Assembly (NCBI GenBank): GCA_947258795.1
Contig: CAMYJU010000001.1
Location: 62,001-126,000, forward strand
Length of the DNA stretch: 64,000 nt
Direction of reading: 5' to 3'
From: an uncultured Gammaproteobacteria bacterium
GTDB taxonomy: Bacteria; Pseudomonadota; Gammaproteobacteria; DRJJ01
A model generated the notes under the pieces. It saw only the letters and a program-made list of their open reading frames with translations. It made no database searches and had not been told where the DNA came from. Below, in pieces: positions 27,295 through 30,934 of the stretch (its first letter is position 1; every line of letters starts with the position of its first letter). Made by a program: the position numbers and the translations under genes.

Positions 27295-28393
27295 ATGATT
27301 GAAGTCAACCAGTTAACCGGCAGTATTACCGACCTCAAGGGACGCGCGGATTCCCTGAGGGGGTATCTTTGACTACGAAAACAAGAAAGAACGACTGACC
27401 GAGGTCGAACGCGAACTGGAGCAGCCGGATGTCTGGAACGAGCCTGAACGGGCCCAGGCGCTGGGCCGCGAGCGAGCATCGCTGGAACGCGTGGTGCATA
27501 ACCTCGAGCGCATCGACACCAGCCTGGAAGACGCCGGCGAGCTGATCGAGATGGCAGCGGAGGAAGGCGATGACGCCGCTCTGCAGGATGTGTCAGCCGA
27601 TATTAGCGCAATGGAAGCTGTGATCAAGGATCTGGAGTTCCAGCGCATGTTTTCCGGTGAGATGGACGCCAGCAACGCCTTTCTGGATATCCAGGCGGGA
27701 TCCGGTGGTACCGAGGCCCAGGACTGGGCCGAAATGCTGTTGCGTATGTACCTGCGCTGGGGTGAGCGCCGCGGCTTCAAGACTGAGCTGATAGAGTGTT
27801 CCGGCGGCGAGGTGGCCGGTATCAAGAGCGCCACGATCCGTTTTGAAGGGGAATATGCGTTTGGCTGGTTGCGTACTGAAATCGGTGTACACCGGCTGGT
27901 GCGTAAATCACCGTTCGATTCCGGTAACCGGCGTCACACCTCATTCGCTGCGGTGTTTGTGTCACCGGAGATTGATGACAGTATCGATATCGATATCAAC
28001 CCGGCTGACCTGCGAATTGATGTGTACCGGGCCAGTGGTGCCGGCGGGCAGCACGTTAACCGTACCGAATCGGCAGTGCGTATTACCCATAACCCGACCG
28101 GTGTGGTGGTGCAGTGCCAGAACGATCGTTCACAGCATAAGAACAAGGCCACGGCGATGAAGCAGCTGAAGGCCAAACTGTATGAACTGGAACTGCAGAA
28201 ACGCAGTGGTGAGCAACAGGCAACGGAAGACGCCAAATCCGATATCGGTTGGGGCAGCCAGATCCGTTCCTATGTGCTGGACCAGTCACGAATCAAGGAT
28301 CTGCGTACCAGCGTGGAAACCGGTAACACCCAGGCCGTACTCGATGGCGACCTGGATATGTTTATTGAAGCTAGCCTGAAAAGTGGCATTTGA
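27295..28393 (+). CDS. prfB: Peptide chain release factor 2 (programmed +1 frameshift)
   Basis: RF2 releases peptides at UAA and UGA. The gene is read in two frames. Twenty-five codons from ATG 27295 end at CTT followed by TGA (27370-27372), and a +1 shift continues at GAC (27371) for 340 more residues. The resulting 365 residues equal E. coli RF2. The stop-recognition tripeptide SPF (RKSPFDSG) and the catalytic GGQ ([15 protein letters not shown]) are both present. A start at the internal ATG 27491 would lose the N-terminal domain. lysS follows after 12 bases. Confidence 0.97.
27358..27373 (+). promoter_or_regulatory. Programmed +1 frameshift site of prfB
   Basis: The Shine-Dalgarno-like AGGGGG (27358-27363) lies three bases before CTT TGA C (27367-27373), the classical autoregulatory arrangement. 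Low RF2 slows reading of the in-frame UGA and allows the shift to GAC. Every element of the canonical site is visible. Confidence 0.95.
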
Positions 28394-28405
28394 GAATATT
28401 GGTTT

Positions 28406-29896
28406 ATGAACGACAAGACTGACGAACACCGCTTGATCGCGGAACGCCGTGACAAACTGAACAAGATCCGTGAGCAGGGTATCGCCTTCCCGAATGACTT
28501 CAAGCGCAATACCGTGGCCGGCGAACTACATGCAGAATATGGCGACAAGGACAACGATTTCTTCGACGCGAACCCGGTACGGGTAAAAGTGGCCGGGCGC
28601 ATGATGCTGCGACGCGTGATGGGCAAGAACAGTTTTGTGAAACTGCAGGATATGTCCGGCCAGATCCAGCTGTTTGTGTCTCGCGATGCCTTGCCCGAAG
28701 GTCTGTATGCGGATTTTAAAGGCTGGGATATCGGCGATATCCTTGGTGCGGAAGGGCTGTTGTTTGTTACCAAGACCGGTGAGCTGTCGGTCAAGCTGGA
28801 CGCGTTGCAGTTGCTGACCAAGTCGTTACGACCCTTGCCGGACAAGTATCACGGGCTGACCGATACCGAGTCACGATACCGCCAGCGTTACGTTGATCTG
28901 ATCATGAGCGATGTGACGCGTAAGACCTTCAAGATGCGTACCGACATTATCCAGTATGTACGCGATTTCCTAAACCAGCGTGATTACCTGGAAGTGGAAA
29001 CACCGATGATGCAGGTGATTCCGGGTGGTGCGACGGCGCGGCCGTTTATCACCTTTCATCATGCCCTGGATATGGACCTGTTTTTACGTGTCGCACCGGA
29101 GTTATACCTGAAGCGCCTGGTGGTAGGTGGGTTCGAGCGGGTATACGAGATTAACCGTAATTTCAGGAACGAGGGCCTGTCGACTCGCCATAATCCGGAA
29201 TTTACCATGGTGGAATTCTATCAGGCCTATGCGGATTACAATGACCTGATGGACCTGACCGAGGAGCTGTTACGTGGTCTGGCGGTGGATGTGATCGGAT
29301 CAACGACCATCAGCTATCAAGGTGAAAGCTACGATTTCGGCAAGCCCTTTGCACGCATGACGGTCAAGGAATCCATTCTACAATTCAATCCGGACCTGAA
29401 CGAGGCGCAACTGGATGATCTTGATCAGGCCAGACAGGTAGCCGACCAGCTCGGTATCCCGCTCAAGGACAGTTACGGGCTGGGCAAGGTGCAGATCGAG
29501 ATCTTCGAGAAGACGGTTGAACACCGCCTGATGGACCCGACCTTTATTACCGCCTACCCAACCGAGGTATCACCACTGGCACGACGTAATGACCAGGACC
29601 CGTTTGTTACCGACCGCTTTGAGTTCTTTGTCGGCGGTCGCGAAATTGCCAATGGCTTCTCCGAGTTGAATGACGCCGAAGACCAGGCCGACCGTTTTCG
29701 CAAGCAGGTGCAGGAAAAGGAGGCCGGCGATGACGAGGCCATGCACTTTGACGAGGATTATATCTGCGCACTGGAACATGGGCTGCCGCCGACCGCGGGC
29801 GAGGGCATCGGTATCGACCGGCTGGTCATGCTGCTGACCGATTCGCCTTCGATCCGCGATGTGTTGCTGTTTCCGCATATGCGGAAGGAAGATTAG
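28406..29896 (+). CDS. lysS: Lysine--tRNA ligase (class II)
   Basis: LysS charges tRNA-Lys. The N-terminal OB-fold anticodon-binding domain has [18 protein letters not shown]-like residues (about 57-74). The class II motifs are present: [10 protein letters not shown] and the dimer segment; motif 2 [18 protein letters not shown]; motif 3 [14 protein letters not shown] near the C-terminus. It has 496 residues (E. coli 505). It is cotranscribed with prfB, the conserved prfB-lysS pair. A structured repeat lies after the stop. Confidence 0.98.
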
Positions 29897-29949
29897 TGCC
29901 CTGATCCACCGGGACCTAGGCACCTCGCAATGACACTAGGCTTTCAAGA

Positions 29950-30053
29950 CGGCTGGCAGAAAGTCTGGCAAAGACCGTCGGCAGCAGGGATGCTGCCGTC
30001 GAGCGTACAGGGATGTATTTACCGCGTGTCTTTGCCAGACTTTCTGGTAGCCG
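29950..30053. repeat. 104-nt inverted-repeat element with two internal hairpins
   Basis: Outer arms of 26 nt (29950-29975 and 30028-30053) are complementary at 24 positions. Inside are two small hairpins that both present GGGA as the loop. The first has stem CGGCAGCA / TGCTGCCG (29979-29998). The second has TACA / TGTA (30006-30017) within GAGCGTACAGGGATGTATTTAC. It lies in the 180-base gap between the convergent lysS and HDOD genes. I recall similar GAGCGTACAGGGATGTA modules as dispersed repeats in other gammaproteobacteria but cannot verify this here. It could act as a bidirectional terminator or a mobile REP-like unit. Confidence 0.7.
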
Positions 30054-30076
30054 ACTCTGACACCGTATAACTATCT

Positions 30077-30934
30077 TTAACCCCCCAGCATCACCTGGAT
30101 TTCGTTGACCTGTCCCATTTCCTCATCCATGATGATCACTTCCATTTCGGTCTCAAGCCCGAGACGAGAGAACGCGCTGACTGTGGACCAGTCGACATCG
30201 GCCAGTGCGTGGTCGGTGCCGACATGGCTTTTCAGGTTGGCAACGATGACCAGATCGGTGTAGTCGGGATTACCGTCATGATCGTAATCCAGGTTTTCAT
30301 GATTCTTCGCGACCTGGATCAATGACTCGGGGAAGGCCCATTTTTTTAGGATATGCGCACCAATGCGGGTATGCAGCCTGGCGGTAATGCTATCCAGTAG
30401 TTCGGGCTGATTAAGCAAATCCGGGACTTCCTCGGCACGTACCAGGATAGGCAGGATGCCGATATCATGGACCAGTCCGGCCATCAGGGCCTGGTCCGGT
30501 TTCAGACCGGGCACTGCTGAAGCCAGTACATGACATATCGCGGCAATTTCGACATTGTGTTCCCACAGGGTACGCAGGCGTACCTCGAGCACATCGTCAG
30601 TCGCCTGAAACATCTGCTGCATGACCAGGCTGATGACCAGGTTCTGGATCTGCTTCTGGCCGAGCCGCGCAATCGCGGTCTGCAGGTTGTCGATCGGGGT
30701 TCTGGGTCGATATAGCGGGCTATTGGCAACCTGTAACAAACGTGCTGACAAGGCTGCGTCTGTGGAAGCGGCTTGGGCTATCTTGCTGGCCGATGCATTT
30801 TCGTCCTCGACGGCATCGCGTACACGTAATGCGACATCGGGCAAGGTCGGTAACACCAGCCGGTTGGACTCAAGGTCGCTGATCAGTTCGTCTACAAAAT
30901 CCTGCTCGTTCCAGCTTTCAGCTACGTTGTTCAT
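30077..30934 (-). CDS. HDOD domain signalling protein
   Basis: A 285-residue cytoplasmic protein dominated by an HDOD domain (about residues 22-220): LPTLPDVALRVRDAV, the KIAQAASTDAALSARLLQVANSP region, AGLVHDIGILPIL and TRIGAHILKKWAFPE. HDOD proteins are catalytically inactive relatives of HD hydrolases that act in signalling, often with cyclic-di-GMP or two-component systems. The short acidic C-terminus (about 240-285) is not recognised. It is convergent with lysS, and ygfZ lies upstream on the same strand. Confidence 0.9.
   Translation of the reverse strand: MNNVAESWNEQDFVDELISDLESNRLVLPTLPDVALRVRDAVEDENASASKIAQAASTDAALSARLLQVANSPLYRPRTPIDNLQTAIARLGQKQIQNLVISLVMQQMFQATDDVLEVRLRTLWEHNVEIAAICHVLASAVPGLKPDQALMAGLVHDIGILPILVRAEEVPDLLNQPELLDSITARLHTRIGAHILKKWAFPESLIQVAKNHENLDYDHDGNPDYTDLVIVANLKSHVGTDHALADVDWSTVSAFSRLGLETEMEVIIMDEEMGQVNEIQVMLGG

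What the first reader, a model, noticed from the sequence alone, without database searches (positions are those of the whole stretch)
29950..30053. 104-nt element: 26-nt inverted arms enclosing two GGGA-looped hairpins
The outer arms match at 24 of 26 positions, far beyond chance. Inside, two unrelated stems both present the loop GGGA. The whole could fold as a three-way or four-way junction in RNA or a cruciform in DNA. It lies between convergent genes. The module GAGCGTACAGGGATGTA looks like part of a dispersed repeat family rather than a simple terminator.
Basis: partly seen in the sequence, partly recalled or inferred. Interest (0 to 1): 0.5.

Follow-up and report, generated by a model that had tools for sequence, protein, structure and literature searches.

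The report
Mobile RNA repeat with CsrA-like loops
A short DNA repeat scattered through this bacterium's genome, and found in many related bacteria, encodes a Y-shaped RNA whose two loops look like paired docking sites for the global regulator CsrA, so it may be a spreading regulatory module rather than an ordinary terminator.

Summary
The element (29947-30056) has 29-nt arms, 90% complementary, around a core with two GGA-loop hairpins. It is one of 11 places in its own genome. Relatives occur in 80 of 370 sampled Gammaproteobacteria, with up to 115 copies in one genome. The ~52-nt core is conserved; the arms differ between copies yet stay complementary.

The same core lies in Yersinia YPAL/RU-2 repeats and Rfam Ysr224. 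New reading: both loops are ANGGAX hexaloops on C-G-closed stems, the published high-affinity CsrA/RsmE site, 22-25 nt apart in 195 of 197 copies with both motifs. In nine ortholog pairs the free N/X positions change (11 of 36), the contacted A and GGA hardly (1 of 72). Wobble pairs mark the GGA strand as the folded one (226 G.U, 54 A.C).

Best explanation: a mobile two-site CsrA/Rsm docking RNA. Binding is inferred. Against it: no sense-strand preference, no promoter signal, and the Ysr224 model reads the opposite strand. Terminator and RAYT/REP readings failed their tests.

The parts
29947..29975 (+). left arm of the closing helix P1
   Evidence: 29 nt, 90% complementary to 30028-30056; pairs covary between copies
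29976..30027 (+). conserved core (three-way junction), GGA-loop strand
   Evidence: (core-only matches, query 28-87)
29980..29997 (+). hairpin P2, GGCAGC-AGGGAT-GCTGCC: ANGGAX hexaloop closed by C-G
   Evidence: P2 loop holds ANGGA in 199 of 218 copies and GGA in 213 of 218, on 106 distinct stems
30003..30025 (+). hairpin P3 with outer GCG/CGC stem, inner TAC/GTA stem, loop AGGGAT (30009-30014)
30005..30016 (+). GTACAGGGATGT, exact match to the CsrA SELEX consensus RUACARGGAUGU
   Evidence: sequence; consensus in PMC7652899 passage
30018..30022 (+). conserved 3' bulge TTTAC (TTYAC in 182 of 218 copies), function unexplained
   Evidence: TTCAC 107, TTTAC 75
30028..30056 (+). right arm of the closing helix P1

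Best explanation
The element is a dispersed, YPAL-related palindromic repeat that encodes a portable RNA docking site for CsrA/RsmA-family proteins. Its GGA strand folds into a long hairpin (P1) topped by a three-way junction that presents two ANGGAX hexaloops about 23 nt apart, a geometry that one CsrA dimer could grip at both sites. Shown: dispersal, conserved core, copy-specific compensated arms, strand-specific wobble, and evolution of the loops in the ANGGAX pattern. Inferred: that CsrA binds; that transcripts running through a copy on the GGA strand thereby titrate CsrA or gain a CsrA-protected stable structure; and that copies spread as non-autonomous repeats moved by other elements' enzymes.
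For: (1) Exact SELEX consensus at 30005-30016 (consensus) and a second ANGGAX hairpin on the same strand; PMC4005645 passages define the high-affinity site as an ANGGAX hexaloop directly on a stem closed by C-G. (2) P2 loop ANGGA in 199 of 218 copies and GGA in 213 of 218 on 106 distinct stems; C-ANGGAN-G in 187 of 218. Among 85 named contigs, one copy each, 74 ANGGA and 83 GGA on 64 stems; that set was found by a pattern that did not include P2. (3) Spacing 22-25 nt in 195 of 197 copies that have both motifs. (4) In nine ortholog pairs: contacted A and GGA 1 of 72 changed, N/X 11 of 36, rest of core 9 of 378, arms 79 of 396, with 35 of 43 changed arm pairs fully compensated (tests: N/X against fixed p = 1.6e-5). 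(5) Arm mismatches on the GGA strand are G.U 226 against A.C 54; 112 against 21 with one copy per named contig. (6) 79 of 80 element-bearing genomes have csrA against 245 of 290 without the element, Fisher p = 1.7e-4. (7) Covariation 0.666 against 0.190 shuffled and 0.094-0.129 slid.
Against: No preference for the GGA strand in mRNA: between co-directional genes it is sense 26 and antisense 44 times (p = 0.04; 15 against 31). No promoter enrichment upstream. The Rfam Ysr224 model matches the complementary strand, so the strand annotated as an sRNA in Yersinia is not the GGA strand. The conserved TTYAC bulge is not explained by CsrA. G.T wobble would also favour one strand of ssDNA. Homogenisation by gene conversion could keep cores alike. 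By energy alone not every copy folds P3 as drawn: L118, L024, L060 and L169 differ there.
Confidence: 0.58

Rival explanations
1. A purely selfish miniature repeat (MITE/YPAL type). The structured core serves transposition, as single-stranded DNA or as a transposase site, and its likeness to CsrA sites is incidental.
For: Dispersed, with many copies and an element-free ortholog in the same genus. In G036 nearly all copies printed lie in a ~200-bp unit with terminal inverted repeats. Opposite-orientation neighbours are nearly always in the (-,+) order, 16 of 16, as in composite mobile units. Orientation towards genes is not sense-biased. YPAL is described as mobile, with target duplications (PMC2229807 section 11).
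Against: The termini are not what is conserved: the core is. No recurrent transposase was recognised among the 14 largest neighbouring ORF clusters printed. Cores stay conserved at orthologous sites while the arms turn over, which speaks for constraint after insertion. Only the positions free in CsrA sites vary in the loops.
Confidence: 0.25
2. An mRNA-stability hairpin: when co-transcribed, the long stem shields upstream mRNA from decay (the effect reported for YPAL, recalled from the De Gregorio 2006 abstract and echoed in PMC2229807), with no role for the loops.
For: A very stable hairpin; the window copy lies 50 nt after the lysS stop; Ysr224 copies are transcribed in Y. ruckeri (PMC12112432 passage).
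Against: Family-wide there is no clear preference for 3' ends (strict: convergent 25, divergent 18, co-directional 70). It does not explain the invariant ANGGA loops or the core conservation.
Confidence: 0.1
3. A bidirectional intrinsic terminator between convergent genes.
For: Hairpin between convergent genes.
Against: No T-run after the arms: T 0.18 and A 0.24 in the 8 nt after the right arm over 218 copies, and none at 30057 onward. Many copies lie between co-directional or divergent genes.
Confidence: 0.04
4. A REP/BIME element moved by a RAYT (Y1) transposase.
For: A palindromic repeat with inverted pairs; the own genome has Y1_Tnp matches.
Against: The intact Y1 gene at C23 is flanked by its own unrelated inverted repeats, and R1 finds no copy at any of the three Y1 loci.
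Confidence: 0.03

Closest known systems
YPAL / RU-2 (Yersinia palindromic sequences)
   Same: The RU-2 sequence printed in PMC2759123 Table 1b (passage) holds the same core: P2 hairpin with an AAGGAT loop, then GAGCCTACATGGATGTATTTACGGCG; long inner arms; dispersed and intergenic.
   Different: YPAL is ~168 bp and described in Yersinia and Erwinia. Arms here differ in sequence and the unit is ~110 bp. The spread across many gammaproteobacterial families, the arm turnover and the CsrA-like loops do not appear in the passages that I saw.
Rfam Ysr224 (RF02770)
   Same: Same core seen from the other strand; a Yersinia similis copy (L118) scores 126.5 bits for Ysr224 and 72.8 bits for the model R1 made here.
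   Different: The window scores 29.4 bits, below the gathering score of 70. Ysr224 models the complementary strand.
CsrB/CsrC, RsmX/Y/Z CsrA-titrating sRNAs
   Same: GGA motifs in ANGGA-type hairpin loops (PMC4005645 passages).
   Different: Those are single loci with many sites and a terminator; this is a dispersed repeat with two sites, a closing helix, and no terminator or promoter found.
REP/BIME with RAYT
   Same: Small palindromic dispersed repeats, often in inverted pairs.
   Different: Different core, and no RAYT association found.

Membership tests
CsrA/RsmE high-affinity RNA site | ANGGAX hexaloop directly on a C-G-closed stem | tested here: met
   Both hairpins in the window; P2 187 of 218; P3 loop 215 of 218 and C-G closing 214 of 218 (P3 figures are biased by the search anchor)
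CsrA/RsmE high-affinity RNA site | constraint on A and GGA but not on N and X | tested here: met
   1 of 72 against 11 of 36 changes in nine ortholog pairs
CsrA/RsmE high-affinity RNA site | binding by the protein | not testable with these tools
   needs a gel shift or CLIP
YPAL/RU-2 | core sequence and order of hairpins | tested here: met
   Published RU-2 sequence; Y. similis copy found by R1
YPAL/RU-2 | ~168-bp unit with conserved arms and flanks | tested here: not met
   Unit ~110 bp; arms unrelated
YPAL/RU-2 | target-site duplication on insertion | tested here: inconclusive
   The element-free G001 ortholog has a 78-bp unalignable intergenic stretch
Rfam Ysr224 | score at or above gathering (70 bits) | tested here: not met
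   29.4 bits
intrinsic terminator | T-run after the hairpin | tested here: not met
REP/RAYT | Y1 transposase gene flanked by the repeat | tested here: not met
   (own genome only)
Csr/Rsm sRNA | own promoter and terminator | tested here: not met
   No promoter enrichment in 210 copies; no T-run

The most novel reading that the evidence does not exclude
A mobile riboregulatory module: across Gammaproteobacteria a repeat spreads a two-site CsrA/RsmA docking RNA to tens or more than a hundred places per genome, forming a distributed CsrA sponge and wiring neighbouring transcripts into the Csr network. The outward-facing (-,+) pairs would ensure that read-through from either side yields one GGA-strand copy.
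Probability: 0.3. Interest if true: 0.85.

Novelty: new variant of a known kind. Interest (0 to 1): 0.6.

Why it matters
If CsrA binds, transposition has been distributing ready-made binding sites for a global post-transcriptional regulator. That would explain why the core of YPAL/Ysr224-type repeats is conserved far beyond Yersinia, and would suggest a function for Ysr224, which a survey lists among the most prevalent annotated bacterial sRNAs (PMC9029176 passages). The idea is directly testable by gel shift or CLIP. In this library the combination of YPAL and CsrA is in no paper.

Tried and rejected
Terminator reading rejected for lack of T-runs. RAYT reading tested and not supported. 3'-UTR or sense-strand bias expected under a simple cis model: not found, slight antisense excess instead. 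Own promoter: not found; best -35/-10 scores upstream (8.29) do not exceed downstream (8.21) or shuffled (8.38). Recurrent neighbouring transposase: not recognised in the 14 largest ORF clusters printed, read by eye. Arms gained anew at each insertion: not needed, since in nine ortholog pairs the arms change by compensation. Pre-existing palindromes as targets: several 'empty' sites in G491/G516 looked by eye like remnants, so this was not decided. Phage or plasmid carriage: no blastn match for the window copy in either collection nor for a Stenotrophomonas copy in plasmids; an exact-pattern scan of viral contigs gave 3 stretches. A Yersinia copy matched 5 of 5426 E. coli genomes, 4 places on plasmids and 1 on a chromosome; the two inspected lie beside transposase genes. 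Rfam microRNA matches are far below their gathering scores and reflect a long hairpin.

Counts dropped: three of twelve pairs (L188/L202, L193/L195, L167/L184) were left out of the nine-pair sums after I saw the output, because their cores belong to different subfamilies and are out of register without gaps. All twelve together give fixed 10 of 96, N/X 22 of 48, rest 60 of 504, arms 144 of 528, 65 of 76 changed arm pairs compensated. One search detects copies by a P3 anchor and arm score, so it misses some: one search shows one (+,-) neighbour pair, in L094 (7133-7235 + and 7374-7475 -), which one search did not catch.

Literature: ten searches. I saw passages only of PMC2759123, PMC2267715, PMC3733652, PMC9788540, PMC4005645, PMC7652899, PMC9029176 and PMC12112432; of PMC2229807 passages and section 11. 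De Gregorio 2006 (PMC1636318) is not held; what I say of it is recalled or second-hand.

Full report
Observation. The element at 29947-30056 is as described: 29-nt arms, 90% complementary, around two hairpins. As RNA its + strand folds as a three-way junction (z -9.5; the - strand z -10.5). It sits between lysS (+, stop at 29896) and an HDOD-type gene (-, stop at 30077) (names are my reading of the translations).

It is a dispersed repeat. BLAST finds 11 places in the own genome, some partial. In 56 genomes, most of the same class, 8 have a match, and in several of these only the ~60-nt core matches. A model R1, made from 29 aligned copies, finds the element in 80 of 370 gammaproteobacterial genomes at E <= 1e-4 (at most 10 candidates scored per genome, so copy numbers there are floors). 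With up to 150 candidates scored, G491 has 115 copies, G516 79, G434 32, G036 61 and G001 45. In a phylum-wide sample 22 of 299 genomes matched, all of the same class; how many of the 299 belong to other classes was not shown.

Anatomy. On the 29-copy alignment 93.2% of pair cells are standard pairs against 68.2% in shuffles, and covariation is 0.666 against 0.190 shuffled and 0.094-0.129 when slid; all 19 arm pairs show changes on both sides. Of 190 anchored copies, 139 have arm scores of 8 or more, against 21 of 570 when left and right arms of different copies are combined. In G491 and G516 many copies share an identical core but have different, self-complementary arms.

Which strand folds. 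If only a DNA palindrome were kept, G.U and A.C mismatches should be equally common. On the GGA strand there are 226 G.U and 54 A.C in the arms of 218 copies; 114 copies have more G.U, 19 more A.C, 85 tie. With one copy per named contig (85) it is 112 against 21. So a single strand, the GGA strand, is under selection to fold. RNA is the simplest reading; strand-specific ssDNA is not excluded.

The loops. P2 stems are almost free: 106 distinct 5' stems in 218 copies, even A7/T7 in L060. Yet the P2 loop has ANGGA in 199 and GGA in 213 of 218. P3 has ANGGA in 215 of 218, but the search anchor contains it. GGA-to-GGA spacing is 22-25 nt in 195 of the 197 copies with both motifs. This is the CsrA/RsmE site: SELEX consensus RUACARGGAUGU and an ANGGAN hexaloop (PMC7652899 passages); high affinity needs an ANGGAX hexaloop directly on the stem, and N and X are looped out (PMC4005645 passages). 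The window has the SELEX consensus exactly at 30005-30016.

Orthologs. G491 and G516, two species of one genus, share copies at orthologous places. In nine pairs the contacted positions changed 1 of 72 times, N/X 11 of 36, the rest of the core 9 of 378, the arms 79 of 396; 35 of 43 changed arm pairs are fully compensated (tests). Three further pairs from different subfamilies were left out; sums with them are in Tried and rejected. This is the strongest evidence that the loops are kept as ANGGAX sites after insertion. Gene conversion between copies is an alternative cause of core similarity, but would not by itself confine loop changes to N and X.

Relation to known repeats. The RU-2/YPAL sequence printed in PMC2759123 contains the same core. 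A Yersinia similis copy scores 126.5 bits for Rfam Ysr224 and 72.8 for R1; the window scores 29.4 for Ysr224, below its gathering score. In Y. ruckeri several Ysr224 copies are transcribed with different profiles (PMC12112432 passage). The Ysr224 model is the strand complementary to the GGA strand, which is against a simple CsrA-sRNA reading.

Mobility. The same-genus relative G001 has a 78-bp lysS-HDOD gap without the element. In G036 the core with its arms lies inside a longer unit with terminal inverted repeats in 11 of 12 rows printed (two rows are one place). Close neighbours within 300 bp: 16 (-,+), 0 (+,-), 4 (++), 1 (--), with one (+,-) pair missed by that detection (L094). No partner transposase was found.

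Gene context. Strict set: sense 26, antisense 44, convergent 25, divergent 18. Thus the element is not a sense 3'-UTR module in general. A mild deficit on the sense strand would fit the GGA loops having effects in mRNA, but p is only 0.04.

csrA. Of 370 genomes 324 have csrA. Comparing the two lists by eye, 79 of the 80 element-bearing genomes have it (G180 does not), against 245 of 290 others (Fisher p 1.7e-4). Genome reduction and ancestry confound this.

Verdict. The element is a class-wide, YPAL-related mobile repeat whose conserved part has the sequence, structure and evolutionary signature of a two-site CsrA/Rsm docking RNA. Binding and function are inferred. The conserved TTYAC bulge, the (-,+) pairing rule and the complementary-strand Ysr224 annotation remain unexplained.

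Noticed in passing
27301-27520: prfB (RF2) carries the usual in-frame TGA after RGYL, with the reading continuing one base on, the known programmed +1 frameshift (frames).
   Followed up: partly
L316 (G000:C23:39584-39913): An intact Y1 (RAYT-like) transposase gene in the own genome, flanked by its own inverted repeats, unrelated to the element.
   Followed up: partly
L118 7800-7830; L091 1460-1870: Stand-alone hairpins with the same loops, GAGCCTCAGGGATGAGGCTC and CCACCATGGATGGTGG, near copies of the element: perhaps single-hairpin relatives.
   Followed up: no
L205-L231 (genome G036): A family of roughly 200-bp MITE-like units with termini CTAAATACGTGTTCCGAATTCC carries the core as an inner part.
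   Followed up: partly
L060 3109-3748; G526:C1:94419-95646: Tandem arrays of the element, about 180 bp apart in L060 and about 228 bp in G526.
   Followed up: no
G516 regions orthologous to G491 copies: Some element-free orthologs hold another repeat, GTAGGTCGGATTA...TAATCCGAC, at the same intergenic place.
   Followed up: no
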